Below are positions 10,195-48,194 of a DNA stretch of 64,000 nucleotides, in pieces. Below the pieces are notes generated by a model. The model was not told where the DNA came from. It searched no databases and saw only the letters and a list, made by a program, of their open reading frames with translations. The position numbers and the translations under genes were made by a program. The DNA comes from Pseudooceanicola antarcticus (GTDB lineage Bacteria; Pseudomonadota; Alphaproteobacteria; Rhodobacterales; Rhodobacteraceae), in assembly GCF_900215355.1 (NCBI RefSeq), contig NZ_OBEA01000008.1, positions 1 through 64,000 of the forward strand, written 5' to 3'. Within the stretch, counting starts at the first letter, position 1, and every line of letters starts with the position of its first letter.

Positions 10195-11034
10195 TCAGGA
10201 CGTCCGCACCAGGTCCGAAAGCCTCTGGCCGAGAGCGGCCTGCGGATCGGCGAGATCAAGGACGATCGTCAGGTGATTGGTCGCCGCCTCGGTTCTCAGC
10301 TCCACCTGCTGCCCCCCGCCTTCCAGCAATGCGCCGAGGGCCACGGCCTGATCTTGGAAGGGTTCGGTCTCGTGTTGGCCGCGGGTGATGATGCGCCGCG
10401 GGACGGGCTCCTGCCGGGCCGAAAGCGGTGACCAGGCACTTGCCTCGTCATCACGCATCTTCGCCTCGTCCCTGAGGAACGAGCCGGGAATGCCCGAGAG
10501 ATCGTAGATCCCGCTGACCATCAGCAAGCCGCGCAGCGCGGGCACGTCCGGAGGGCCGGAGTCTCCCGGTGCCTCGGCGGCAAGCAGAGAGGTCAGATGC
10601 GCGCCCGCAGAATGGCCACTCACGGTGAAGCGGGCGGGATCGGCGCCGATCTCGGGGGCCAGGTGGGCCAGATGCCGCGCGGCGGCGCGGACCTGGGCGA
10701 CGATCTCGGCCAGCCGGGTGTCCGGCATCAGGTCATAGCCGATGAGCGCCGTGATGCCGCCCGCCGCGACCACGGGGGCCGCAACGAGCGTATGGACGTC
10801 CTTGCTGCCGCCGCGCCAGTAGCCGCCATGGATGAACATGTGCAGCGGCGCGCCGGGAGCCGGGTCGGGCGGAAAGACGAGGTCGAAGCTCTGCCGGGGC
10901 GTCTCGCCATAGCTGAGGTTGCGCTCGATACGGACGGTCTCGGCGAAGGCGCGGCTGCGCGCCTCCGTCTCTGCCATGATCGCATCGAAATCGGGGATGA
11001 AGTCCCGGTTGCGGTAGGGATCGCGTGCGGACAT
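10195..11034 (-). CDS. Alpha/beta hydrolase (kynurenine formamidase/esterase-like)
   Basis: This is a serine hydrolase of 279 residues. An oxyanion-hole motif HGGYWRGGSK appears near residues 69-78 and the nucleophile elbow GHSAGAH near 140, with a C-terminal His in a NHLTI context. The HGG-Y-W plus GHSAGAH combination is typical of arylformamidase-like esterases; the natural substrate could be an ester, lactone or formamide. It is the last gene of a leftward four-gene operon (18 bases behind the aldehyde dehydrogenase). Together with three dehydrogenases it suggests catabolism of a compound that is oxidised and hydrolysed, but the substrate is unknown. Confidence 0.82.
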   Translation of the reverse strand: MSARDPYRNRDFIPDFDAIMAETEARSRAFAETVRIERNLSYGETPRQSFDLVFPPDPAPGAPLHMFIHGGYWRGGSKDVHTLVAAPVVAAGGITALIGYDLMPDTRLAEIVAQVRAAARHLAHLAPEIGADPARFTVSGHSAGAHLTSLLAAEAPGDSGPPDVPALRGLLMVSGIYDLSGIPGSFLRDEAKMRDDEASAWSPLSARQEPVPRRIITRGQHETEPFQDQAVALGALLEGGGQQVELRTEAATNHLTIVLDLADPQAALGQRLSDLVRTS

Positions 11035-38055: not shown

Positions 38056-38085
38056 CTTCCGGGCGCTCAGTCGCGCGCCCGGAAG
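38056..38085 (+). terminator. Terminator of the second TRAP operon
   Basis: A perfect 10-bp stem (CTTCCGGGCG / CGCCCGGAAG) with a 10-nt loop is followed by GGTTTT. It lies 17 bases after the dctM stop and covers the last codons and stop of the convergent permease gene. Confidence 0.7.
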
Positions 38086-38990
38086 GGTTTTCCAAGCGAT
38101 AGCGGCACATCCAGCGCCATCCGCGCGCGGTTCTGCGAAATCACCACCAGCACCAGGATCGTGGCAACGTAGGGCGCCGCCGAAAGCGCCTCGGAGGGCA
38201 CCGGCAGGCCCAGGATCTGGCCATGCAGCTGAAGGATGGTCACGCCACCGAAGAGCACCGCACCGGCCAGCACCCGGAACGGTCGCCAGGTGGCGAAGAC
38301 CACCAGCGAGAGCGCGATCCAGCCGCGCCCGGCGGTCATGTTCTCGACCCAGATCGCGGTATAGGCCAGCGACAGGTAGCCGCCCGCCAACCCCGCCAGC
38401 GCGCCGCCCCAGAGGATCGCGAGGAAGCGGATGCGCAGCACGTTGTAGCCAAGCGCATGGGCATTGCCCGGTGCCTCGCCCACCACCCGCAGCACCAGTC
38501 CGGCCCGGCTGCGGTTGAGCCACCACCAGGTGACCGGCACCAGCGCCAGGCCAAGATAGACCATGATGTCGAAGCGGAAGAGCAGCGGCCCGAGCAGGGG
38601 CAGATCAGCAAGCGGCCCGAGGTTCAGCGGTGCCAGCGCCTCGATCGGCTGTGATCCGAAGCCCACCCCCAGCGTCGCCGAGACGCCGGAGCCGAAGATC
38701 GCCAGCGCCAGCCCGGCGGCATATTGGTTGGTCAGGAAAAGCAGCGTCAGCACCCCGAAGAGCGCCGCCGCGACAGCACCCGCAAGGGCCGCCACCGCGA
38801 AGGCGGGCAGAAGGCCCCCGCCCTGCACCGCGACCAGGAAGCCCGCAGCCGCCCCGATCAGCATCATGCCCTCGATCCCGAGGTTCAGCACGCCGGACTT
38901 CTCGACCACCAGCTCGCCCAGGGCGGCCAGCAGCAGCGGCGTGGCGGCAATCAGCGTGCCGGTGAAGATGGAAATCGCAAGCTCGCTCAT
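38067..38990 (-). CDS. BMP-type ABC transporter permease, second permease (purine locus)
   Basis: This 307-residue permease belongs to the nucleoside/BMP ABC subfamily. It shows the KSGVLNLGIEGMMLIGAAAGFLVA landmark near residue 32 and eight or more hydrophobic helices. The ATG overlaps the first permease stop by four bases. It is the last gene of the leftward importer operon. The importer is divergent from the Ndm-like oxygenase and guanine deaminase genes, so its substrate is probably a purine base or nucleoside. Confidence 0.9.
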   Translation of the reverse strand: MSELAISIFTGTLIAATPLLLAALGELVVEKSGVLNLGIEGMMLIGAAAGFLVAVQGGGLLPAFAVAALAGAVAAALFGVLTLLFLTNQYAAGLALAIFGSGVSATLGVGFGSQPIEALAPLNLGPLADLPLLGPLLFRFDIMVYLGLALVPVTWWWLNRSRAGLVLRVVGEAPGNAHALGYNVLRIRFLAILWGGALAGLAGGYLSLAYTAIWVENMTAGRGWIALSLVVFATWRPFRVLAGAVLFGGVTILQLHGQILGLPVPSEALSAAPYVATILVLVVISQNRARMALDVPLSLGKPFRARD

Positions 38991-40057
38991 GCGGCGGCCC
39001 TCCCGGTGCGGACAAGCCGGTAGCTGACGAAGAATTCAGAGGCCAGCAGCAGGAACAGCAGCAGGCCCTGGAAGACGCGGGTGATGGGCGACGGGATGCC
39101 GTGGCTCATCTGGACGCTCTCGCCGCCGACATAGGTCAGCGCCAGGAAGAGACCTCCCAGCAGGATGCCGGGGGCCGAGAGACGGCCGACGAAGGCCACG
39201 ATGATCGCCGCGAAGCCATAGCCCGGAGAGATCACCGCCGAAAGCTGCCCCAGGGGGCCTGCGGCCTCGTAGAAACCGGCGATCCCGGCGGCGGCCCCCC
39301 CCGTGAGCAGTCCGACCCAGATCGCACCCTTCTCGGAGAAGCCCGCGTAGCGCGCCGCGCGCGGGGCCGCGCCGCCGACCGACAGCCGGTAGCCCGCGAA
39401 GCTGCGCGCGGTGACGACCCAGAGCGCCACCAGCGCGATCAGCGCGAAAACGACCGAGGCGGTGACGCGATACATCGGATCGAGCGGTTCGAGCATGCCC
39501 TCGTAGGGCAGCAGCGCCGTCTGGGGGAAGTTGTAGCCATTGGGATCGCGCCAGGGCCCGCGCACCAGGAACGACAGGAAGAGCCCGGCGATATAGGTCA
39601 GCATCAGCGTGACCAGGATCTCGTTGGTATTGAGCTTCGTGCGCAACAGGGCCGCGATCCCGGCCCAGGCCGCGCCCCCGACGAGGCCGGCCACGAACAT
39701 CAGCGGCAAGAGCATCGGGTAGAGCGCCTCGGGCGCGAAGAGCCCCACCCCGGTCGCCGCGATGGCCCCCATGGTCAGCTGTCCCTCGGCACCGATGTTC
39801 CAGACATTGGCGCGGAAGCCCACCGAGAGCCCGGCGGCGATGATGATCAGCGGCACCGCCTTCACCAGCAGCTCGGTGAAGCCGTACATGGACGAAACGG
39901 GGCGGATGAAGAAGGCGGTGAGGGTCTCGATGGGCGGATAGCCCAGCACGGCAAAGAGCGCGCCACCGAAGAGCAGGGTCAGAGCCACGGCGATGACCGG
40001 GGCCAGCAGGTTGGCCAGGGCCGAGGCATTGCGGCGCGGTTCGATACGATAGCTCAT
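38987..40057 (-). CDS. BMP-type ABC transporter permease, first permease (purine locus)
   Basis: This 356-residue permease carries FRANVWNIGAEGQLTMGAIAATG near residue 85, the family landmark, and TNEILVTLMLTYIAGL in the cytoplasmic loop region that follows. It pairs with the 307-residue permease, whose gene it overlaps by four bases, to form the membrane channel. Its start is three bases from the ATPase stop. Length and layout match YufP-type subunits. Confidence 0.9.
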   Translation of the reverse strand: MSYRIEPRRNASALANLLAPVIAVALTLLFGGALFAVLGYPPIETLTAFFIRPVSSMYGFTELLVKAVPLIIIAAGLSVGFRANVWNIGAEGQLTMGAIAATGVGLFAPEALYPMLLPLMFVAGLVGGAAWAGIAALLRTKLNTNEILVTLMLTYIAGLFLSFLVRGPWRDPNGYNFPQTALLPYEGMLEPLDPMYRVTASVVFALIALVALWVVTARSFAGYRLSVGGAAPRAARYAGFSEKGAIWVGLLTGGAAAGIAGFYEAAGPLGQLSAVISPGYGFAAIIVAFVGRLSAPGILLGGLFLALTYVGGESVQMSHGIPSPITRVFQGLLLFLLLASEFFVSYRLVRTGRAAA

Positions 40058-40060
40058 GTC

Positions 40061-41581
40061 TTACTCCGCCGGCTCGGCAACGGGCCCCAGCTCTCCGCCG
40101 GTCATCAGCGCGCCGAGGCGGTCCTTCGTGGCTTCCTCGCGGGGCACCGCCTCGCTGAGTTGGCCCTCCGAGAGAACATGGATGCGGTCGCAGATCTCGA
40201 TCAGCTCGTCGAGCTCTTCCGAGAAGACCAGAACCGCCGCGCCATCGCGCGACAGGTCGATCAGGCGCTGGCGGATGAAGGCGGCGGCGCCCACGTCGAC
40301 GCCCCAGGTGGGCTGGGCGACGACCAGCACGTCGGGCGCCAGCGCCAGCTCGCGGCCCAGGATGAATTTCTGCAGGTTGCCCCCCGAGAGCGAGGAGGCC
40401 AGCGCCCCCGGCCCGTCGGCCTTGACCGAGAAACGCTCGATCACCGCGCTCGCACGGCGGCGGGCCTCGGCGAAGCGCACCATCCCATGGCGCACAAGGC
40501 CCGAGGCATAGCCCGTCAGCACCGTGTTGGCGGTCAGCGACTGGCCCGGCACCGCGCCGCGGCCCAGCCGTTCCTCGGGCACATAGGCCAGCCCCGCGCG
40601 GCGACGCGCATCGGGGCGCATCTGGCCAACCGGGGTCTCGCCCAGAAGCACCTGGCCCGCCGGGCAAAGCGCCTCGCCCGAGAGGCAGGCCGCCAGCTCG
40701 GACTGGCCATTGCCCGAGATGCCGGCGATGCCCACGACCTCGCCCCCGAAAAGATCAAGAGAGATATCCTGCAGGCGGCGCCCGGCCAGGCCAAGGGGCC
40801 GGCCCGAGAGCCCGCGCAGCGACAGGCGCGGCGTGGCGGAGGGCGTGGAGGCGGGGCGTTCGGGGATCGGCAGGTCGCTGCCCACCATCATCACCGCCAG
40901 TTCATGGCTGGTGGCCTGACGCGGGTCGACCTCGCCCGTGACCCGCCCGCCGCGCAGCACGGTGGCGGCGTGGCAGAGCGCGCGCACCTCGTCCAGCTTG
41001 TGGGAAATGTAGATGATCGAGCAGCCCTCGGCGGCAATGCGGCGCAGCACGGTGAAGAGCTGCTCCACCGCCTGCGGCGACAGCACCGAGGTCGGCTCGT
41101 CGAGGATCAGCAGGCGCGGATCGCGCATCAGGCAGCGCAGGATCTCGAGCTGCTGGCGCTCGCCCATGGACAGATCCATGACGATGCGGTCGGGATCGAC
41201 CGCCAGCCCGTAGCGCGCGGCGGTCTCGCGGATGCGCAGCCGCAGGGCCGGAAGATCCAGCCGCCCTTCCAGGCAGAGCGCCACGTTCTCGGCCACCGAG
41301 ACCGTCTCGAAAAGGGAAAAGTGCTGGTACACCATCTCGATGCCGAGGGCCCGCGACTGGCCGGGGCTATGCGCCTCCAGCAGCTTGCCGTCGTAGCGGA
41401 TCTCGCCCGCATCGGGGGTGGTGACCCCGTAGATGATCTTCATCAGCGTGGATTTGCCCGCGCCATTCTCGCCCAGGATGGCGTGGATCTCTCCCCCGGC
41501 GACCGAGAGAGAGATATCGTCATTGGCCACCACACCAGGGTAGGCCTTGGAGACACCGGCCAGTTGCAGCCTTGCAGTCAT
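40061..41581 (-). CDS. BMP-type ABC transporter ATP-binding protein (purine locus)
   Basis: This 506-residue protein has two ABC ATPase domains. Domain 1 has the Walker A GENGAGKST near residue 38, the signature LSMGERQ and Walker B LLILDEPTS. Domain 2 has a degenerate P-loop (GISGNGQS), LSGGNLQK, and VLVVAQPTWGVDVG, in which the catalytic acidic pair is lost. This pattern is normal for the BMP subfamily. It lies 53 bases behind the binding-protein gene and directly before the two permeases. Confidence 0.92.
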   Translation of the reverse strand: MTARLQLAGVSKAYPGVVANDDISLSVAGGEIHAILGENGAGKSTLMKIIYGVTTPDAGEIRYDGKLLEAHSPGQSRALGIEMVYQHFSLFETVSVAENVALCLEGRLDLPALRLRIRETAARYGLAVDPDRIVMDLSMGERQQLEILRCLMRDPRLLILDEPTSVLSPQAVEQLFTVLRRIAAEGCSIIYISHKLDEVRALCHAATVLRGGRVTGEVDPRQATSHELAVMMVGSDLPIPERPASTPSATPRLSLRGLSGRPLGLAGRRLQDISLDLFGGEVVGIAGISGNGQSELAACLSGEALCPAGQVLLGETPVGQMRPDARRRAGLAYVPEERLGRGAVPGQSLTANTVLTGYASGLVRHGMVRFAEARRRASAVIERFSVKADGPGALASSLSGGNLQKFILGRELALAPDVLVVAQPTWGVDVGAAAFIRQRLIDLSRDGAAVLVFSEELDELIEICDRIHVLSEGQLSEAVPREEATKDRLGALMTGGELGPVAEPAE

Positions 41582-41634: not shown

Positions 41635-42717
41635 TCAGCCCAGGGTGCCGATCATGCCAGCGGTCAGCCAGTCGATGCCGCGAACGTCCCCATCCGAGAG
41701 CACCTCGCCCGCCGGGACGATCTCGTTGCCGGCGTTGTCCGAGATCGGGCCGGCGTAGGGCTGCACCTCGCCCGAGCCGACGGCGACCACGAGCGCTTCG
41801 AGCTCGGCGCGGACCTCGGCCGGGATGGCCTCGTGGAAGGGTGCCATGGTGACGACACCGGCGGCCAGACCATCCCAGGCGCTTTCGGTTTCCCAGGTGC
41901 CGTCGAGCACGGCACGGGCGGCGCCGACGTAATCCTTGGACCAGTCCAGCACCACCGAGGTCAGCTGGCTGTCAGGCCCGAACGAGATCAGGTCCGAAGC
42001 GTAACCGACAGAGAAGACACCCTTTTCCTGAGCAGTCTGGACGGCGACGCCGGTATCGGTCATGCCCAGCAGAACGTCTGCACCCTGGGCGATCAGGGCG
42101 CTTGCGGCTTCCTTTTCCTTGCCCGGATCGAACCAGGAGTTGAGGAAGACGGCGTTGCAGGTGATCTCGGGGTTCACCGATTGCGCACCCAGCAGGAAGG
42201 CATTGCCGGGGCCGACGATGTCGGGGATCGGGAAGCCGCCGATGAAGCCCAGCTTGCCGGTCTTGGTCATATGGCCCGCGGCGACACCGGCCACGTACAT
42301 GCCCTCGTAGTACTTGGCCTCGAAGGTGGCCAGGTTGTCGAGGTGGACGATGCCCGAGCAATGCTCCCAGGCGACATCGGGGAAGCGCGGCGCCACCTTC
42401 TGCATCGGCGCGCCGAGCGAGAAGGAGGTGCCGAAGATCAGGCCATGGCCGGTGGCGGCCATCTCGCGGAAGACGCGCTCTGCGTCCTGGGGCAGGAAGG
42501 TGTTGTCGACGACGGTCACCTCGACGCGGTCACCGAACTCGGCCTTGATCGCCTCGATGCCCAGGGCGTGCTGCTTGGCCCAGCCGATATCGGCGGCGGG
42601 CGAGGCATTGACCTGGCCGATCTTCAGGACGCCCTCGGCGCTGGCAAGGCGCGGCAGGGCCAGGGTGCCCGCCAGGGCGGCGGTGCCCTGGAGCAAGGTG
42701 CGGCGGTTGATGGTCAT
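41635..42717 (-). CDS. BMP-family substrate-binding protein, Tat signal (purine locus)
   Basis: This 360-residue periplasmic protein belongs to the BMP/Med family of nucleoside-type binding proteins. The twin-arginine signal INRRTLLQG is at residues 3-11, followed by a hydrophobic core and an ASA cleavage site. Family landmarks are GIHHLDNL-like SGIVHLDNLATFEAKYYEG, then GFIGGFPIPDIVGPGNAFLLGA and ADVLLGMTDTGVAVQTAQEKG. The ATG at 42717 has an AGGAG ribosome binding site; the frame is open upstream without support. Divergent genes for an Ndm-like oxygenase and guanine deaminase suggest a purine, perhaps methylated, as ligand; this is inference. Confidence 0.9.
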   Translation of the reverse strand: MTINRRTLLQGTAALAGTLALPRLASAEGVLKIGQVNASPAADIGWAKQHALGIEAIKAEFGDRVEVTVVDNTFLPQDAERVFREMAATGHGLIFGTSFSLGAPMQKVAPRFPDVAWEHCSGIVHLDNLATFEAKYYEGMYVAGVAAGHMTKTGKLGFIGGFPIPDIVGPGNAFLLGAQSVNPEITCNAVFLNSWFDPGKEKEAASALIAQGADVLLGMTDTGVAVQTAQEKGVFSVGYASDLISFGPDSQLTSVVLDWSKDYVGAARAVLDGTWETESAWDGLAAGVVTMAPFHEAIPAEVRAELEALVVAVGSGEVQPYAGPISDNAGNEIVPAGEVLSDGDVRGIDWLTAGMIGTLG

Positions 42718-42779
42718 CTCTTCTTCTCCTGTTGTCAGGCCCGGCACGGGCCAGGCGGTCTGGGTCTTTACCGTCCGTC

Positions 42780-43478
42780 TCAGGCGGGTGCGGTTTCCGT
42801 CTCGAGCCATGGCGCCAGTGCTTCTTTCAGACTGGCCGGTTCGGCAACCGGTGCCTCGACGTCATATCCTCGGGCGATGGATTGGTAGTGGTTCTGGATC
42901 AGCGAAAGCGCCTCGGTGACGCGGCCCGCGCGCATGTGATCCAGCAGATCGCGGTGATCGTCGTTCAGGCGGCAGCGGTGGTAGTCACGGTTGACGTAGA
43001 GCTGCCGCAGCAGCTGCATCCGGCGCACCAGACGGGCATGGACCTCCTGCAGCGCGCGATTGCCCGAGAGGGCCAGCAGGTGATCGTGGAAGATCGGGCC
43101 GATATCGTCCGCATGGACATTGTCGCCCAGGTCGATCGCGGCATCGACCTCGTCGACATTGGCCGCCATGACCTCCCATTCGCGGCCCGAGAGCCGTTGC
43201 ATCAGTTGGAAGGCCACCCCCTGCTCGACCGCGCTCAGCGCCTCGAAAAGCTCGTAGGCCTCGCGCTGGCCAAGCTGCGCCACCGAGGCACCTCGGTTCA
43301 TGCGCGTGTCGACCAGGCCGCTCTCTCCGACGATGATCAGCGCCTGCTTGATCACCGCGCGGGAGGTGCCCCAGACCTCGGCCAGCTCGCGTTCGCCCAG
43401 CTTGGTGCCGGGGGGCAGCGCCTGGGCGACGATAGCCGCGATGATCGCCTTCGCGATCTGTCTGGGTCGGTCGGTCAT
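42780..43478 (-). CDS. GntR-family regulator of the purine locus
   Basis: This 232-residue regulator has a GntR-type winged helix (LPPGTKLGERELAEVWGTSR, AVIKQALIIVGESGLV) and an FCD-type helical effector domain (IFHDHLLALSGNRALQEVHARLV). It is the first gene of the leftward operon, 62 bases before the BMP binding protein, and divergent from the ndmC-like gene. A short inverted repeat at 43580-43596 is a possible site. The ATG at 43478 gives the normal domain start; the frame is open 23 codons upstream. Related proteins respond to small organic acids; a purine-derived effector is only guessed. Confidence 0.86.
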   Translation of the reverse strand: MTDRPRQIAKAIIAAIVAQALPPGTKLGERELAEVWGTSRAVIKQALIIVGESGLVDTRMNRGASVAQLGQREAYELFEALSAVEQGVAFQLMQRLSGREWEVMAANVDEVDAAIDLGDNVHADDIGPIFHDHLLALSGNRALQEVHARLVRRMQLLRQLYVNRDYHRCRLNDDHRDLLDHMRAGRVTEALSLIQNHYQSIARGYDVEAPVAEPASLKEALAPWLETETAPA

Positions 43479-43579
43479 GGCCGCTTTGCCTATTGCCTGT
43501 GCAACGAAGTTGACCCGACAAAGCGATTGCGCATCTGATCTTGTCAAGCCAGACGAAGCATTGTCATAGCTAAATTCAA

Positions 43580-43596
43580 AGATTGCTATTCAATCT
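43580..43596. promoter_or_regulatory. Candidate operator upstream of the ndmC-like gene
   Basis: AGATTG and CAATCT form a perfect 6-bp inverted repeat around CTATT. It lies in the AT-rich 144-base divergent region between gntR and the oxygenase gene, 27 bases before the GTG start, so binding there could block the rightward operon. Confidence 0.45.
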
Positions 43597-43622: not shown

Positions 43623-44480
43623 GTGAACACCATGACCCAGCCCGACCCGTTCATGTTGAACCAATGGTATCCGATTGCATCTCTGCAAGAGATACTGCCC
43701 GGTCAGCCCCGTGCCACCAAGCTCTTTGGCCAGCGTATCAGCTATGAACGTAACGTCGCGGGCGCCCTGCAGGTCAGCGATGGCAGCCGCGCCCTGCCGG
43801 TGCTCGAGCAATACGGCTGCCTCTGGACCTCGCTCGGCGAGCCGGACGAACTCTTCGATGTGCCCGAATATGCCGAGCCCGACCGGCGCAATGTCAACGC
43901 GGGCTCCGTCGGCGTGCAGGTCTCGGCGCAGCGCGGCATCGAGAACTTCCTCGACATGGGCCACTTCCCCTACGTGCACACCGGCATCCTGGGTGCCCTG
44001 CCCCATACCGAGGTCAAGGAATACAATGTCGAGATGATCCGCGACGGCCGCGAAATCATCGCCACCGAATGCCTCTTCTACCAGCCCATGGCCTCGACCG
44101 TGTCGACCTCGGGCGCGGATGTGGAATACATCTACCGGGTGCCCCACCCCACCTGCTCGGTGCTCTACAAGAGCTCTCCGATGGATGAGAAGCGGCTGGA
44201 TGCCATCGCGCTCTTCGGCCAGCCCACGGGCGAGGAAACTTTCCGCGGCCACATGGTGCTGTCGATCCTCGACGACGTGAACACCGACGATTTCATCAGC
44301 TATTTCCAGCTGCACATCTTCGGCCAGGACAAGCCGATCCTCGAGAACCAGATGCCCAAGCGCCTGCCGCTTGATCCGCGCGCCGAGACCCCGATCCGCG
44401 CCGACAAGACCTCGATCATGTATCGCCGCTGGCTGACCGGCCATGGCGTGACCTACGGCACGATCCCGGCAGCGGCCTGA
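43623..44480 (+). CDS. ndmC-like: Rieske-less non-heme iron oxygenase subunit (NdmC-like)
   Basis: This 285-residue protein is the catalytic domain of a VanA/NdmA-type ring-hydroxylating or demethylating oxygenase, but it lacks the Rieske domain. The normal N-terminal start (FMLNQWYPIAS) runs straight from an ISYERN strand to LEQYGCLWTSLGEP with no C-x-H and C-x2-H pairs between. The mononuclear iron site is visible: NFLDMGHFPYVH with D111, H114 and H119. GTG at 43623 is preferred because GGAGAG lies five bases upstream. The next gene encodes a reductase that carries the missing Rieske domain. Exactly this split is known for NdmC of caffeine-degrading Pseudomonas putida CBB5, an N7-demethylase of 7-methylxanthine. 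The substrate here is unproven. Confidence 0.85.
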   Translation: MNTMTQPDPFMLNQWYPIASLQEILPGQPRATKLFGQRISYERNVAGALQVSDGSRALPVLEQYGCLWTSLGEPDELFDVPEYAEPDRRNVNAGSVGVQVSAQRGIENFLDMGHFPYVHTGILGALPHTEVKEYNVEMIRDGREIIATECLFYQPMASTVSTSGADVEYIYRVPHPTCSVLYKSSPMDEKRLDAIALFGQPTGEETFRGHMVLSILDDVNTDDFISYFQLHIFGQDKPILENQMPKRLPLDPRAETPIRADKTSIMYRRWLTGHGVTYGTIPAAA

Positions 44481-44498
44481 GGCGAGAAGGACCTGAAC

Positions 44499-46181
44499 AT
44501 GCACGACAAGACCTGGGTCCCGGTGGCCAACAGCACCGACCTTGCGCCGCATCACGTCTTCCAGGGACGGCTGATGGGACAGGAGCTGGCGATCTGGCGG
44601 GCCGATGACGGCCATGTCAACGTCTGGGAGAACCGCTGCCTGCACCGTGGCGTGCGCCTCTCCATCGGCATCAACACCGGCAGCGAGCTGGTCTGCCAGT
44701 ACCACGGCTGGCGCTATGCCAACCGCAATGCCGGCTGCACCTATATTCCCGCCCACCCCGCCGATGCCCCGGCGCGCACCATCTGCTCGAAGACCTGGCC
44801 GGTGATCGAGACGGGCGGGCTGATCTGGACCCACTTTGAAGACCGCGACCCGCCCCTGCCCGAGCTGCCCGAGGGCGGCGCGGCGCTGCGGCCCCTGCCC
44901 CTTGCGGCCGCGCCCGAGATGGTGCGCGAGAGCCTTGCGGGCCTCGCGCCCGAAGGCTTCGGCCCCCTCGACGAGACGCTTCAGGCCCGCGGCCCCGCGG
45001 GTTCGCTGCACCTGATGGTCCAGCCCGCCGACGCGGGCCGCGCCGTGATCCGCGGCATCGTGCAAAGCGACGAGCCCGAGCTGGCGCTGCTGCGCCGCCT
45101 CAACCTCTTCCTGCGCTCCGCCCGTGACCAGATCCTGGCCCAGGCGGCGCTGACCCCGGCCCCCGAGCCCATCCCGCACCGCCCCGAGCGCGTCTCGGAG
45201 GAGCTGGCAGAGATGCCCGAGATGGTTTCGGGCCCCGCCCGCCTGCGGGTCCAGGTGGCAAAGAAGGAGCTGGTGGCCAAGGACATCGTCGCGCTCGAGC
45301 TGGAGCCCCTGCGTGGCGCGCTGCCCGCCTCTCAGCCCGGCGCCCATATCGACGTGGCGCTGCCCAACGGGCTGCTGCGGCAATATTCACTGGTCAACGC
45401 GCCGGGCGAGACCGGTCGTTATGTCATCGGCGTGAAGCGCGAGCCCGAAAGCACCGGCGGCTCGGCGGCGATCCACGACAGCCTGGCCGAGGGCGACCTG
45501 CTGGCGATCTCGGAGCCGCGCAACAATTTCACCCTGCGCCGCGATGTCGAAGAGACGATCCTTGTCGCCGGCGGCATCGGGGTGACGCCGCTGCTGTCGA
45601 TGGCCGCCGCGCTGAAGGACGACGGGCTCCCCTTCCGCCTGCACTACTTCGCCGGCAGCGAAGAGCAGATCGCCTTCGGCGAACGCCTGGCCGCGCTTGG
45701 CGACCGGTTGGTCAACTACATCGGCCTCGACCCCGAGAAGACCGCCCTGGCGCTGAAGGGTATCCTCAAATCCCCGGCTCCCCATGCACAGGTCTATGTC
45801 TGCGGCCCCGCGCCGATGCTGGACGTCACACGCGCCACCGCCGCCGAAGCGGGCTGGCCCGACGCCGCCGTGCATTTCGAGTATTTCGCCAACACCCGCG
45901 AGATCGACACCTCGTCGAGCTTCCGCATCGAGCTGGCGCGCTCTGCCGTGACGCTGGAGGTGCCCGCCGGGCGCTCCATCCTGTCGGTCCTGCAGGAGGC
46001 GGGCGTCGCGCCGCCCTCGTCCTGTTGCCAGGGGGCCTGCGGCACCTGCATGGCCCGCGTCATCGAAGGCGAGCCCGACCACCAGGACGTCTATCTGAGC
46101 GAGGCCGAGAAGGCCGCCGGAGACAAGATCCTGACCTGTGTCAGCCGTGCAAAGTCCGACCGCCTCATCCTGGATCTCTGA
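44499..46181 (+). CDS. ndmD-like: Rieske-containing oxygenase reductase (NdmD-like)
   Basis: This 560-residue electron-transfer protein has four parts. An N-terminal Rieske [2Fe-2S] domain has ligands C47, H49, C66 and H69 (CLHRG, CQYHGW). A middle region of about 130 residues (100-230) looks like the shrunken remains of an oxygenase domain. A ferredoxin-reductase module follows, with flavin motif RQYS (294-297) and NAD motif GGIGVTP. A C-terminal plant-type [2Fe-2S] domain has C509, C514, C517 and C547. Electrons would pass from NAD(P)H through flavin and ferredoxin to the Rieske centre, then to the NdmC-like subunit. NdmD of P. putida CBB5 has the same unusual N-terminal Rieske domain. It is 18 bases behind the oxygenase gene and three bases before the GST-like gene. 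Confidence 0.87.
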   Translation: MHDKTWVPVANSTDLAPHHVFQGRLMGQELAIWRADDGHVNVWENRCLHRGVRLSIGINTGSELVCQYHGWRYANRNAGCTYIPAHPADAPARTICSKTWPVIETGGLIWTHFEDRDPPLPELPEGGAALRPLPLAAAPEMVRESLAGLAPEGFGPLDETLQARGPAGSLHLMVQPADAGRAVIRGIVQSDEPELALLRRLNLFLRSARDQILAQAALTPAPEPIPHRPERVSEELAEMPEMVSGPARLRVQVAKKELVAKDIVALELEPLRGALPASQPGAHIDVALPNGLLRQYSLVNAPGETGRYVIGVKREPESTGGSAAIHDSLAEGDLLAISEPRNNFTLRRDVEETILVAGGIGVTPLLSMAAALKDDGLPFRLHYFAGSEEQIAFGERLAALGDRLVNYIGLDPEKTALALKGILKSPAPHAQVYVCGPAPMLDVTRATAAEAGWPDAAVHFEYFANTREIDTSSSFRIELARSAVTLEVPAGRSILSVLQEAGVAPPSSCCQGACGTCMARVIEGEPDHQDVYLSEAEKAAGDKILTCVSRAKSDRLILDL

Positions 46182-46184
46182 GAC

Positions 46185-46826
46185 ATGATCAAACTCTACG
46201 ACTTCGACCTCTCGGGGAATTGCTACAAGGTCCGGCTGCTGCTCGGCATCCTCGGCCTCGAATTTGAACGCAAGAACGTCGACTTCTTCCCCGGTTTCAA
46301 GCACCGCGCCGCCGAGTTCCTCGCGGTGAACCCCCTGGGCCAGCTGCCGGTGCTGGAAGACGGCGACCTCAGCCTGCGCGACAGCCATGCGATCCTGGTC
46401 TACCTGGCCTCGAAATACGATGGCTCCGGGCGCTGGTATCCGACGGGCGATGCGGCGCTTCTGGGCGAAATCCAGCAATGGCTCTCGCTGGCCGAGGGCC
46501 TGACCGCAACCGCCTCGGCGGCGCGACTAGCCGAGGGGATGGATTTCGACTTCGACGCCGAGGCCGCCCGCAAGGGCGCCTACCGCCTCTTCGACGTGCT
46601 CGACGAACACCTGTGGTTCCGCGAGCGCGAGGGATCCGACTGGATCTGCGCGCCCGCGCATCCGACCATCGCCGACCTGGCCTGCTTCCCCTATGTGATG
46701 CTGTCCGAAGAGGGCGGCGTCTCGCGCGAGGACTACCCGGCGATCCGGCGCTGGACCGACCGGGTGAAGCGCATCCCCGGCTTCTCGGTCATGCCCGGCA
46801 TCTTCCCCGCCCAGCTCGGGTCCTGA
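46185..46826 (+). CDS. ndmE-like: Glutathione S-transferase-like protein (NdmE-like)
   Basis: This 213-residue protein has a thioredoxin-like N-terminal GST domain (MIKLYDFDLSGNCYKVRLLL, NPLGQLPVLEDGDLSLRDSHAILVYL) and a helical C-terminal domain. In a typical GST the DSHAI(S) motif binds glutathione. In caffeine degraders the GST-like NdmE is not a free transferase but a structural partner that holds NdmC and NdmD together. Its place directly after the oxygenase and reductase genes, and the Rieske-less state of the oxygenase, make the same role likely here. A genuine glutathione-dependent activity cannot be excluded. Confidence 0.83.
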   Translation: MIKLYDFDLSGNCYKVRLLLGILGLEFERKNVDFFPGFKHRAAEFLAVNPLGQLPVLEDGDLSLRDSHAILVYLASKYDGSGRWYPTGDAALLGEIQQWLSLAEGLTATASAARLAEGMDFDFDAEAARKGAYRLFDVLDEHLWFREREGSDWICAPAHPTIADLACFPYVMLSEEGGVSREDYPAIRRWTDRVKRIPGFSVMPGIFPAQLGS

Positions 46827-46829
46827 TTG

Positions 46830-48194
46830 ATGGGCACAGCAGACTTCGCCCGTGTCATCACGGGCACCGCCTTTCATACCCCCGCCCGGGACCGTCTGGA
46901 GGTGCTGGAAGACCACGCCTTCGTGCTGGATTCCACGGGGACCATCACCCAGATGCTGCCCGCAGGCGATGCCCGCCGGACAGAACTCGTCGAGGCCGCC
47001 CGCAGCCGCGGCGTGCTCGAGGAACTGCCCAAGGGCAGCTTCCTGATCCCCGGTCTGGTCGACCTGCACATCCACGCGCCGCAATGGCCGCAGCTCGGCA
47101 AGGCACTGGATGCGCCGCTCGAGGTCTGGCTGCATAAGTACACCTTCCCCATGGAGGCGCGCTTCGCCGATACCGCCTTCGCGGCCGAGGTCTATGACGA
47201 GATGGTCGCCACCCTGCTGGCCCATGGCACCACCACGGCGGTCTATTTCGGATCGGTCGAGGTCGAGCCCAACCTGGTGCTGGCCGAGGCCTGCCTGCGC
47301 CATGGCCAGCGGGCGCTGATCGGCAAGGTCGCCATGGACGACCCCGACAATTGCCCGCCCTACTACCGCGACGACAGCGCCCAGGCCGGTCTGGACGCCA
47401 CGCGCCGCTTCATCACCGAGCTGCGCCAGATGGCCGGAGAGGACCCGCTGGTGCTGCCGGTGGTCACCCCGCGCTTCATCCCCTCCTGCTCGGACGAGCT
47501 TTTGGCCGGTCTCGGGGCGCTGGCGAAAGAGCTCGACTGCCACGTGCAGACCCATTGCTCGGAAAGCGACTGGGAGGTCGGCCATGTCGCCGCCCGTCTC
47601 GGCCAGACCGATTGCGAGGCGCTCTCGGGGCATGGTCTGCTGACCGAACGCACGGTGCTGGCGCATTCCAACTTCATCACCGAGGACGACATGGGCCTGC
47701 TTTGTGCCCATGGCTCAGCCGTGGCCCATTGCCCGATGTCCAACGCCTATTTCGCCAATGCGGTCTTCCCGCTTCGCCAGGCGCTGGAGCGCGGTGTGAA
47801 GGTTGGGCTCGGCACCGATATCTCGGGCGGCTTCAGCCCCTCGCTCTTCGATGCGGCGCGCCATGCGCTTATGGCCTCGCGCCATGCGGCCTCCGGCACC
47901 GACCCCTCGCTGCCCCCCGAGGCACGCGGCCCCGGCAGCCGCCCGCTCAGCACGGTCGAGACCTTCTGGCTGGCCACCGCCTCCGGCGGCGCGGCGCTGG
48001 ATCTGCCGATCGGGCAATTCGCCCCCGGCTACCGTTTCGATGCCCTGGCGATCGAAGCCAATGCGCCGGGCTCGGGCTTCCGCCATTACGCCGCGCTCGA
48101 TGCGCCGGAAGATTGTTTCGAGAAACTGGTGCTGACCGCGGACCGGGGTGCCATCGCGCGCATCTGGGTCGACGGCACGCCCCGGCTCGACTGA
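46830..48194 (+). CDS. guaD: Guanine deaminase (amidohydrolase)
   Basis: This 454-residue zinc amidohydrolase converts guanine to xanthine and ammonia. Metal ligands are in PGLVDLHIHAPQW (H80, H82), THCSESDWEVGH, AHSNFI and GLGTDISGG. The stretch AHCPMSNAYFANAVFPLRQALE and the PQW motif after HIH mark it as guanine deaminase rather than another chlorohydrolase. The ATG at 46830 is chosen; a TTG just before it is also in frame. It is the last gene of the operon and lies three bases behind the GST-like gene. It suggests that the oxygenase complex makes or uses a guanine-type purine. Confidence 0.9.
   Translation: MGTADFARVITGTAFHTPARDRLEVLEDHAFVLDSTGTITQMLPAGDARRTELVEAARSRGVLEELPKGSFLIPGLVDLHIHAPQWPQLGKALDAPLEVWLHKYTFPMEARFADTAFAAEVYDEMVATLLAHGTTTAVYFGSVEVEPNLVLAEACLRHGQRALIGKVAMDDPDNCPPYYRDDSAQAGLDATRRFITELRQMAGEDPLVLPVVTPRFIPSCSDELLAGLGALAKELDCHVQTHCSESDWEVGHVAARLGQTDCEALSGHGLLTERTVLAHSNFITEDDMGLLCAHGSAVAHCPMSNAYFANAVFPLRQALERGVKVGLGTDISGGFSPSLFDAARHALMASRHAASGTDPSLPPEARGPGSRPLSTVETFWLATASGGAALDLPIGQFAPGYRFDALAIEANAPGSGFRHYAALDAPEDCFEKLVLTADRGAIARIWVDGTPRLD

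What the first reader, a model, noticed from the sequence alone, without database searches (positions are those of the whole stretch)
43623..48194. Ndm-like split Rieske demethylase complex with guanine deaminase: candidate 7-methylguanine or other purine-opening pathway
Four tightly packed genes encode a Rieske-less oxygenase, a reductase carrying an extra N-terminal Rieske domain, a GST-like protein and guanine deaminase. The first three match the special NdmC-NdmD-NdmE set of caffeine-degrading Pseudomonas putida CBB5, whose activity is removal of the N7-methyl group of 7-methylxanthine. Here no NdmA/B-like gene is seen, and a guanine deaminase follows instead. A purine-type BMP importer diverges. 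An attractive reading is salvage of 7-methylguanine (from turnover of m7G RNA or alkylated DNA): demethylation to guanine, then deamination to xanthine, or the reverse order through 7-methylxanthine. An oxidative hydroxylation of a free purine is the main alternative.
Basis: partly seen in the sequence, partly recalled or inferred. Interest (0 to 1): 0.9.

Follow-up and report, generated by a model that had tools for sequence, protein, structure and literature searches.

The report
Predicted 7-methylguanine import and demethylation operon
A probably marine bacterium carries a compact gene set, related to the bacterial caffeine-eating machinery, that appears built to import a methylated purine base such as the 7-methylguanine shed by worn-out RNA, strip off its methyl group and feed it into normal purine breakdown; the parts are clear, the exact substrate is a prediction.

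Summary
43623-48194 encodes a Rieske-less oxygenase (NdmC-like), an NdmD-type reductase carrying its own Rieske domain, a GST-like NdmE and a guanine deaminase, diverging from a GntR regulator and a BMP-type ABC importer. Against a caffeine ndmABCDE cluster (L102) the window NdmC is 45% identical; it lies in a separate, widespread clade but keeps each substrate-shell residue I could map. Three lines point to demethylation of an imported guanine-type base: formaldehyde-detoxification genes FrmA/FrmB near NdmC in 14 of 94 loci; a second, non-housekeeping GuaD clade near NdmC in 12 of 94 loci and co-occurring with it in a 387-genome sample; and an importer whose closest ligand-known relatives hold guanine and adenine, with both sandwich aromatics in 41 of 41 aligned homologues. 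Best reading: 7-methylguanine to xanthine. N-demethylation of a methylated purine is about 85% likely, 7-methylguanine itself 50-55%. NdmCDE-like clusters of unknown function are already in print; the search listings showed no paper linking them to guanine deaminase or 7-methylguanine.

The parts
43623..44480 (+). NdmC-like Rieske-less non-heme iron oxygenase subunit (285 aa)
   Evidence: VanA_C Pfam 58.3 bits; no Rieske motif; iron ligands H114, H119, D236; 45% identical to NdmC of a caffeine cluster; AF2 model pLDDT 81.8, best PDB matches GxtA/SxtT then NdmA
44499..46181 (+). NdmD-like reductase: N-terminal Rieske domain, flavin/NAD domains, C-terminal plant-type ferredoxin
   Evidence: Rieske part 54% and reductase part 39% identical to NdmD of L102
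46185..46826 (+). NdmE-like GST-fold protein
   Evidence: GST_N/GST_C; 59% identical to NdmE of L102
46827..48194 (+). guanine deaminase of a second, non-housekeeping clade (called GuaD2 here)
   Evidence: TIGR02967 401 bits, above cut-off; motifs DLHIH 79, HAPQW 83, TPRF 214, THCSES 242, AHSNF 279, GTDIS 329; separated from 30 canonical GuaDs, 100/100 support
42780..43547 (-). GntR/FCD-family regulator, divergent
43566..43589 (.). candidate operator ATAGC-N14-GCTAT in the divergent promoter region
   Evidence: in 3 of 27 divergent intergenic regions examined (window, L015, L022); 8 matches in all in 1.68 Mb of loci, these included
41635..42810 (-). BMP-family substrate-binding protein, purine type (likely start near 42717)
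   Evidence: Bmp Pfam; 303.6 bits to 3s99 and 285.7 bits to guanine-bound AtzT 6pi5; W77, W226, S129, F130, D197, D252 at AtzT's ligand positions
40061..41581 (-). ABC importer ATPase
38987..40057 (-). ABC importer permease 1
   Evidence: BPD_transp_2
38067..38990 (-). ABC importer permease 2
   Evidence: BPD_transp_2

Best explanation
The locus is a catabolic unit for an imported N-methylated guanine, most likely 7-methylguanine released by turnover of m7G-containing RNA and by repair of alkylated DNA. The BMP binding protein and ABC importer take up the base. NADH electrons pass through the flavin and ferredoxin domains of the NdmD-like protein to its own N-terminal Rieske cluster and then to the mononuclear iron of the Rieske-less NdmC-like subunit; the GST-like NdmE holds the split oxygenase together. 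The iron hydroxylates the N7-methyl group, which leaves as formaldehyde. GuaD2 supplies the other step (guanine -> xanthine, or 7-methylguanine -> 7-methylxanthine before demethylation), and xanthine goes to the cell's xanthine dehydrogenase. Shown here by sequence: the parts, the split architecture, the iron ligands and mapped pocket residues, the recurring links to importer, deaminase and (in relatives) formaldehyde genes. Inferred: substrate, regiochemistry, order of steps, complex formation, electron path, regulation.
For: (1) All parts of the split NdmCDE system are present and match a caffeine-type ndm cluster whose NdmA and NdmB match the solved enzymes. (2) At the substrate-shell positions I could map from the SxtT/GxtA papers (F109, D193, H210, Q229, I232; also F233) the window equals the P. 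putida-type NdmC (4 of 4 rows) and 85-87 of 87 main-clade rows, while NdmA/NdmB have F at 210 and N/Q at 229, and the paralogue NdmC' has M229. (3) FrmA and/or FrmB, which dispose of formaldehyde, lie in 14 of 94 loci, mostly 2.4-4.7 kb from NdmC (one of each checked by family model). (4) GuaD2 lies 2.4-8 kb from NdmC in 12 of 94 loci, in four NdmC clades and several gene arrangements; it needs 6 changes on the NdmC tree, 4 if the cut-short locus L062 and the first of L044's two NdmC rows are left out. (5) Sample not chosen through either gene's neighbour: 387 alphaproteobacterial genomes, GuaD2 (E<=1e-95) in 6, NdmC (E<=1e-50) in 7, both in 3; without the window's own genome 2 of 386, hypergeometric P=0.002; in G318 they share a contig, GuaD2 at the end of the BMP importer operon. 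(6) Other guanine-type deaminases occur with NdmC: Nocardioides (another GuaD subfamily, with xanthine dehydrogenase and purine permease genes), Rhizobium SU303 (8-oxoguanine-deaminase-like) and others. (7) The binding protein's closest ligand-known relatives hold guanine (AtzT, KD 0.11 uM) and adenine (3s99 model); both sandwich aromatics and the Phe are kept in 41 of 41 aligned NdmC-linked homologues, the window's own included. (8) The genome has a canonical GuaD, XdhB and FrmA elsewhere, so the operon GuaD is an additional one.
Against: I know of no activity shown for any member of this clade, and none can be tested here. GuaD2 was not found in 82 of 94 NdmC loci (some cut short by contig ends) and occurs in genomes where the same searches gave no NdmC or none near it (G073, G117, G323 in the 387-genome sample; G014, whose NdmC copies lie on other contigs); G117 has no other GuaD over the cut-off. 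So GuaD2 is not a dedicated methylguanine enzyme. The 94 loci are mostly the best matches and are phylogenetically redundant; the co-occurrence P value is not corrected for relatedness and rests on two genomes besides the window's own, one of which (G390) has the genes on different contigs. FrmA/FrmB are in relatives' loci, not in the window. Mapped pocket residues are equally compatible with 7-methylxanthine, the known NdmCDE substrate, and with other methylated guanines. Twelve columns conserved in the main clade differ in the caffeine-type NdmC (e.g. H128, P174-H175, E241), so the substrate may differ in an unknown way. In the binding protein, AtzT's Asn218 is Met and Glu165 is Asp, so guanine-type binding is not proven.
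Confidence: 0.55

Rival explanations
1. The complex N-demethylates a different methylated guanine (1-methylguanine, N2-methyl- or N2,N2-dimethylguanine), also RNA-derived, before or after deamination.
For: A 2026 paper reports dedicated N2,N2-dimethylguanine hydrolases in the AtzB/8-oxoguanine deaminase cluster, so methylated guanines are real bacterial substrates; amidohydrolases most like 8-oxoguanine deaminase lie 0.7-8.2 kb from NdmC in L052, L097, L100 and L106. The main NdmC clade differs from caffeine-type NdmC at 12 conserved columns.
Against: The window deaminase is a TIGR02967 GuaD, only 104.6 bits to the 8-oxoguanine deaminase model (cut-off 532). Mapped pocket residues equal those of the P. 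putida-type N7-demethylase NdmC.
Confidence: 0.17
2. It is simply a 7-methylxanthine (methylxanthine) N7-demethylase, as in caffeine degraders, and the guanine deaminase and importer are ordinary purine-salvage neighbours.
For: The characterised NdmCDE uses 7-methylxanthine (PMC4408171 passages); mapped first-shell residues match.
Against: Separate clade from caffeine-type NdmC; no NdmA/B partner found near it to make 7-methylxanthine; the second GuaD clade recurs with NdmC in several lineages; AtzT, a relative of the importer's binding protein, prefers guanine and binds the other nucleobases tested poorly apart from adenine (xanthine is not in that table).
Confidence: 0.15
3. Oxidative hydroxylation of a free purine ring (guanine, xanthine, urate) without any methyl group, like a Rieske purine hydroxylase.
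For: Rieske oxygenases hydroxylate C-H bonds; the nearest solved structures, SxtT and GxtA, are hydroxylases of a guanidinium-bearing tricycle.
Against: FrmA/FrmB in 14 of 94 loci suggest formaldehyde; the genome already has a xanthine dehydrogenase XdhB at 1183.9 bits.
Confidence: 0.08
4. The substrate is not a purine (for example an s-triazine-like or other heterocycle) and the purine neighbours are historical.
For: AtzT and AtzB, relatives of such importers and deaminases, are tied to atrazine catabolism.
Against: Purine genes recur near NdmC in distant bacteria: GuaD types, xanthine dehydrogenase, purine permeases.
Confidence: 0.05

Closest known systems
NdmCDE of caffeine-degrading Pseudomonas putida CBB5 (7-methylxanthine N7-demethylase)
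   Same: Rieske-less oxygenase, Rieske fused to the reductase, GST-like third subunit, gene order C-D-E, same mapped substrate-shell residues; compared through the CBB5-like cluster L102 and three related plasmid clusters (PMC4408171 passages)
   Different: 45% identity in NdmC, separate clade, 12 signature columns differ; no NdmA/B and no FrmA/FrmB next door; guanine deaminase and BMP importer instead
ndmCDE-like clusters of unknown function in Sinorhizobium, Mesorhizobium and others
   Same: same main clade, about 57-62% identity in NdmC, same type of importer and regulator in many
   Different: many carry an extra NdmC' paralogue with M229, some FrmA/FrmB; only some carry GuaD2
Guanine deaminase (E. 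coli/human GuaD, TIGR02967)
   Same: family score above cut-off, catalytic motifs kept, human GDA the best PDB match
   Different: distinct clade from the housekeeping GuaD of its relatives; second type seen in 3 of 22 genomes of the genus, own included
AtzT / 3s99 purine-binding BMP proteins
   Same: 303.6 bits to 3s99, 285.7 bits to AtzT; aromatic base sandwich and Ser-Phe kept
   Different: AtzT Tyr45 is Trp, Glu165 is Asp, Asn169 is Pro, Asn218 is Met, Asn220 is Asp in the window
N2,N2-dimethylguanine hydrolases (NdmH; unrelated use of the letters Ndm)
   Same: another route for methylated guanine catabolism (PMC13054789; abstract, section 7 and passages)
   Different: hydrolytic removal of the substituted amine by an AtzB-cluster amidohydrolase, no oxygenase; a term search of its main text found no 'Rieske', 'operon' or 'demethyl'

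Membership tests
NdmCDE split Rieske N-demethylase | oxygenase subunit without a Rieske motif but with intact mononuclear iron ligands | tested here: met
   no CxH..CxxH in P0001; H114, H119, D236 present; none of the 128 NdmC-like aligned stretches has the motif, NdmA and NdmB of L102 both do (in the relatives only the stretches aligned to NdmC were tested)
NdmCDE split Rieske N-demethylase | Rieske domain at the N-terminus of the FMN/NAD/ferredoxin reductase | tested here: met
NdmCDE split Rieske N-demethylase | adjacent GST-like NdmE | tested here: met
   59% identity to NdmE of L102
NdmCDE split Rieske N-demethylase | substrate-shell residues of NdmC | tested here: met
   positions 109, 193, 210, 229, 232, 233 equal to 4 of 4 P. 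putida-type rows; SxtT positions 226, 228, 230 could not be placed because of a gap; the PDB search at E<=0.001 listed no solved NdmC
NdmCDE split Rieske N-demethylase | falls inside the caffeine-type (P. putida) NdmC clade | tested here: not met
   separate clade; 12 columns conserved in at least 95% of 87 main rows are absent from the 4 caffeine-type rows
NdmCDE split Rieske N-demethylase | N7-demethylation of 7-methylxanthine, stable C-D-E complex | not testable with these tools
   needs protein
guanine deaminase (TIGR02967) | score above the curated cut-off and catalytic motifs | tested here: met
   401.3 vs 375.4 bits; motifs against the human GDA alignment
guanine deaminase (TIGR02967) | same clade as the housekeeping GuaD of its relatives | tested here: not met
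   13 GuaD2 rows against 30 canonical rows, one branch, 100/100
AtzB-cluster NdmH / 8-oxoguanine deaminase | scores as 8-oxoguanine deaminase (PRK08203) above cut-off; no NdmH model was at hand | tested here: not met
   104.6 of 532 bits for P0004
purine-binding BMP (AtzT-type) importer | base-sandwich aromatics and hydrogen-bonding residues | tested here: inconclusive
   Tyr45->W, Trp194, Ser97, Phe98 kept, Glu165->D; Asn218->M, Asn220->D, Asn169->P
VanA-type O-demethylase oxygenase | own Rieske domain plus VanA_C domain | tested here: not met
   VanA_C domain present (58.3 bits, cut-off 23.5) but no Rieske domain

The most novel reading that the evidence does not exclude
The main NdmC clade (87 rows here, from Alpha- and Gammaproteobacteria and Actinomycetota) is a widespread 7-methylguanine N7-demethylase, an oxidative salvage route for the methylated base shed by RNA turnover and DNA alkylation repair, and the caffeine-type NdmCDE is a derived offshoot that lost guanine-type contacts (candidates H128, P174-H175, E241).
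Probability: 0.45. Interest if true: 0.78.

Novelty: new variant of a known kind. Interest (0 to 1): 0.62.

Why it matters
7-Methylguanine is a common breakdown product of ribosomal and transfer RNA, mRNA caps and alkylated DNA (general knowledge), yet the listings of my searches of the held open-licence library (titles and abstract starts only, 25 of 39 and 12 of 25 papers listed) showed no paper on a bacterial enzyme that demethylates it. If right, this explains what many NdmCDE-like clusters of unknown function do, gives caffeine catabolism a possible evolutionary source, and opens a nitrogen and one-carbon route from spent RNA in soils and the sea. It is testable at once with existing E. 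coli guanine-auxotroph growth assays.

Tried and rejected
Considered and set aside: a VanA-type O-demethylase (no Rieske domain in the oxygenase); an AtzB/8-oxoguanine-type deaminase; GuaD2 as an enzyme exclusive to methylguanine (it occurs without NdmC). Tried with little result: palindromes in the divergent promoter (one candidate, in 3 of 27 regions); the marine transporter paper PMC10130141 holds none of six purine or BMP terms; literature searches on methylguanine catabolism in bacteria listed nothing on the point. SxtT residues 226, 228 and 230 could not be mapped across a gap and were left out. The structure model came without coordinates, so no docking was possible. Rows dropped: NdmC-like hits aligned over about 150 residues or less, or at 30% identity or less (128 of 130 features kept in the tree); BMP rows aligned over 250 residues or less (41 of 45 loci kept); L017, a second copy of the L077 locus.

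Features in the 94 loci were assigned by best tblastn match to reference proteins; most were not checked by a family model. Row classes (main, prime, caffeine, third, split) were assigned by me from the tree. The two 387-genome samples are taken to be the same set because number and listed handles agree. The 6 changes of GuaD2 on the NdmC tree fall to 4 when L062 (contig ends early) and the first of the two L044 rows are left out.

Full report
What is there. The four genes at 43623-48194 are real and tightly packed. The first encodes a 285-residue oxygenase with a VanA_C catalytic domain (58.3 bits) and no Rieske motif; the second a Rieske + flavin/NAD + plant-type ferredoxin reductase; the third a GST-fold protein; the fourth a guanine deaminase above its curated cut-off. 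Upstream and divergent lie a GntR/FCD regulator and a complete BMP-type ABC importer on the minus strand. The flanking genes I scanned that matched a family are TRAP, manganese/iron ABC and oligopeptide/nickel-type ABC transporter parts and one LysR regulator. One relative, G016, of the same genus, has a contig of 4,365,781 bases with NdmC at the same place as in the chromosome of Pseudooceanicola spongiae HQ09 (NZ_CP045201.1), so the window's genus is very probably Pseudooceanicola (inference; that the genus is marine is recalled).

Positive control. Pseudomonas putida MT178 plasmid pTmex-577K (L102) carries a caffeine-type cluster: its NdmB matches PDB NdmB at 785 bits, its NdmA PDB NdmA at 764.6 bits and its reductase the solved NdmD ferredoxin domain at 163.8 bits. 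Against it the window proteins are 45% (NdmC), 54% (Rieske), 39% (reductase) and 59% (NdmE) identical. An AlphaFold2 model of the window NdmC (pLDDT 81.8, pTM 0.83, 27-row alignment) matches 24 chains of GxtA/SxtT first, then NdmA and NdmB.

Distribution. In 60 genomes (own included), 10 had a match at E<=1e-10; 7 of these, all of the window's genus (22 sampled, own included), carry a full-length NdmC-like gene. One scan of species genomes gave 530 confirmed loci, the best 80 kept; 232 plasmid records match. I mapped features in 94 loci (window, 6 relatives' loci, 80 species loci, 7 hand-picked plasmid loci): NdmC in 94, Rieske 84, reductase 78, NdmE 78, all four 74; a BMP protein in 52, in 45 of them closest to the window's. 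Several relatives have the Rieske domain as a separate gene (L019, L020, L106, L159).

Chemistry. FrmA and/or FrmB, the enzymes that oxidise formaldehyde through glutathione, lie near NdmC in 14 of 94 loci: 13 rhizobial, rhodobacterial or related loci, 2.4-4.7 kb away, whose main NdmC is 56-61% identical to the window's, and the caffeine control. One FrmA and one FrmB were confirmed by family model (L045); the rest are tblastn assignments at 46-98% identity. At one or two copies per genome of 4-7 Mb, about one or fewer such neighbours would be expected among 94 loci of up to 20 kb (my estimate; no control loci were run). This is the strongest evidence for demethylation rather than ring hydroxylation. 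The window lacks them; the genome has an FrmA over the cut-off elsewhere.

Substrate class. The operon GuaD is not the housekeeping one. The genome has a canonical GuaD at 506 bits on another contig. Across 60 genomes, 34 have a GuaD at E<=1e-90; 35 canonical matches score 486.5-557.9 bits, and a second type at 389.9-401.3 bits occurs in the window's genome, G003 and G014 only. In a tree, 13 such GuaD2 proteins and 30 canonical ones separate on one branch with 100/100 support. GuaD2 lies 2.4-8 kb from NdmC in 12 of 94 loci: in the window's clade, in Mesorhizobium and in Granulosicoccaceae; it needs 6 changes on the NdmC tree, or 4 with the cut-short L062 and the first L044 row left out. Because those were found through NdmC, I ran a test that does not start from the neighbourhood: in 387 alphaproteobacterial genomes GuaD2 (E<=1e-95) is in 6 and NdmC (E<=1e-50) in 7, with 3 shared; leaving out the window's own genome, 2 of 386, P=0.002 (relatedness not corrected). 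In G318 the order is BMP-ATPase-permeases-GuaD2, facing NdmE-Rieske-NdmC-GntR: same parts, different layout. In G390 the two lie on different small contigs. Against: GuaD2 without NdmC on the stretch occurs in G014, G073, G117 and G323, with XdhA-like or NCS2-permease-like genes on the stretch in G117 and G323, and G117 and G390 have no other GuaD over the cut-off. GuaD2 thus looks like a general guanine deaminase repeatedly recruited here.

Independent deaminases. Nocardioides immobilis pairs NdmCDE with a different GuaD subfamily, xanthine dehydrogenase genes and a purine permease/OHCU-decarboxylase ORF. Rhizobium SU303 has Rieske-NdmC-NdmE followed by an 8-oxoguanine-deaminase-like amidohydrolase (370.5 bits, below the 532 cut-off) and the BMP importer. 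L052 and L100 carry 8-oxoguanine deaminases over the cut-off, 3.4 and 6.6 kb from NdmC.

Importer. The binding protein's nearest solved relatives are 3s99 (303.6 bits) and AtzT 6pi5 (285.7 bits). Passages of PMC6834077 report that AtzT holds guanine through purification, KD 0.11 uM against 2.5 uM for adenine, that guanine lies between Tyr45 and Trp194 with Ser97, Phe98, Glu165, Asn218 and Asn220 in contact, and that 3s99 was modelled with adenine. Counting along the alignment, these map to W77, W226, S129, F130, D197, M250, D252 in the window; in 41 aligned NdmC-linked homologues (window included) both Trp and the Phe are in 41, Ser in 39, Asp or Glu at 197 in 41, Met or Ile at 250 in 34, Asp at 252 in 37. 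The site is purine-like but altered where AtzT touches the guanine amine.

Active site of the oxygenase. SxtT/GxtA contacts (Ser159, Asp239, Met/Tyr255, Tyr273, Thr/Val276, iron ligand Asp280; passages of PMC7293229 and PMC8752792) map through the alignment to F109, D193, H210, Q229, I232, D236. D193, whose counterpart binds the substrate guanidinium in SxtT and GxtA, is Asp in all 128 NdmC-like rows and faces a gap in NdmA/NdmB. Positions 229 and 233 correspond to the two NdmA residues changed in the 'QL mutant' structures listed (that these are N282 and F286 is recalled). The window equals caffeine-type NdmC at all of these; NdmC' has M229 in 27 of 27 ungapped rows and a third paralogue H229/L233 in 4 of 4. 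So the window keeps the mapped part of the N7-type pocket. Yet 12 columns conserved in at least 95% of 87 main rows are absent from the four caffeine-type rows, among them H128 -> L, P174-H175 -> (A/T)R and E241 -> I/L. That fits a related but different purine, which I take to be 7-methylguanine; whether these residues touch substrate is unknown, and E241 is shared with NdmA and NdmB.

Assembly of the argument. An imported base + guanine deaminase + an enzyme with the mapped N7-demethylase pocket residues + formaldehyde genes in relatives + xanthine dehydrogenase in the genome (1183.9 bits) gives 7-methylguanine -> xanthine + formaldehyde + ammonia. The order is open: a second GuaD beside a housekeeping one would suit deamination of the methylated base first, yielding 7-methylxanthine, the known NdmCDE substrate; GuaD2 as the only GuaD over the cut-off in G117 suits plain guanine deamination after demethylation.

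Novelty. A 2015 review (PMC4408171, passages) already counts 18 further organisms with ndmCDE-like clusters of unknown function, naming Sinorhizobium and Mesorhizobium. A 2026 paper (PMC13054789; abstract, section 7 and passages) describes N2,N2-dimethylguanine hydrolases. Searches for 7-methylguanine with NdmC and demethylase, and with Rieske, found 0 papers; wider searches joining 7-methylguanine, guanine deaminase, Rieske, GST or demethylation listed no paper making this link (listings only, capped in 16 and 93). Only open-licence papers are held. So: new variant of a known kind, with an unproven but specific and testable function.

Noticed in passing
L107 8074-8940; L040, L050, L061, L064: Rhizobia carry NdmC' (M229 instead of Q229) just upstream of NdmC, and these four loci a third paralogue (H229, L233) with another BMP importer type: likely demethylases for other positions of methylated purines, sharing one NdmD/NdmE.
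   Followed up: partly
L106 8336-10487, L159 15960-18133, L019, L020: Versions of the system in which the Rieske domain is a gene of its own, not fused to the reductase.
   Followed up: partly
window 43566-43589: ATAGC-N14-GCTAT palindrome in the divergent promoter, shared with L015 and L022 among 27 regions examined: candidate GntR operator.
   Followed up: partly
L097, L100, L069, L094: Acidimicrobial loci combine NdmC with adenosine-deaminase-family proteins, an 8-oxoguanine-deaminase-like protein (L097, L100) or a 2-oxoglutarate/iron oxygenase (L069).
   Followed up: no
L104: Klebsiella pneumoniae plasmid from a urine isolate carries NdmCDE plus an NdmB-like gene (70% to NdmB) with insertion sequences on both sides.
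   Followed up: no
window 10684-10774: ARAGORN calls a 91-base tRNA-His with anticodon ATG that overlaps long ORFs; probably a false positive.
   Followed up: no
L143 (G014): GuaD2 73% identical to the window's, without NdmC on the 20-kb stretch but near another BMP-type importer.
   Followed up: partly
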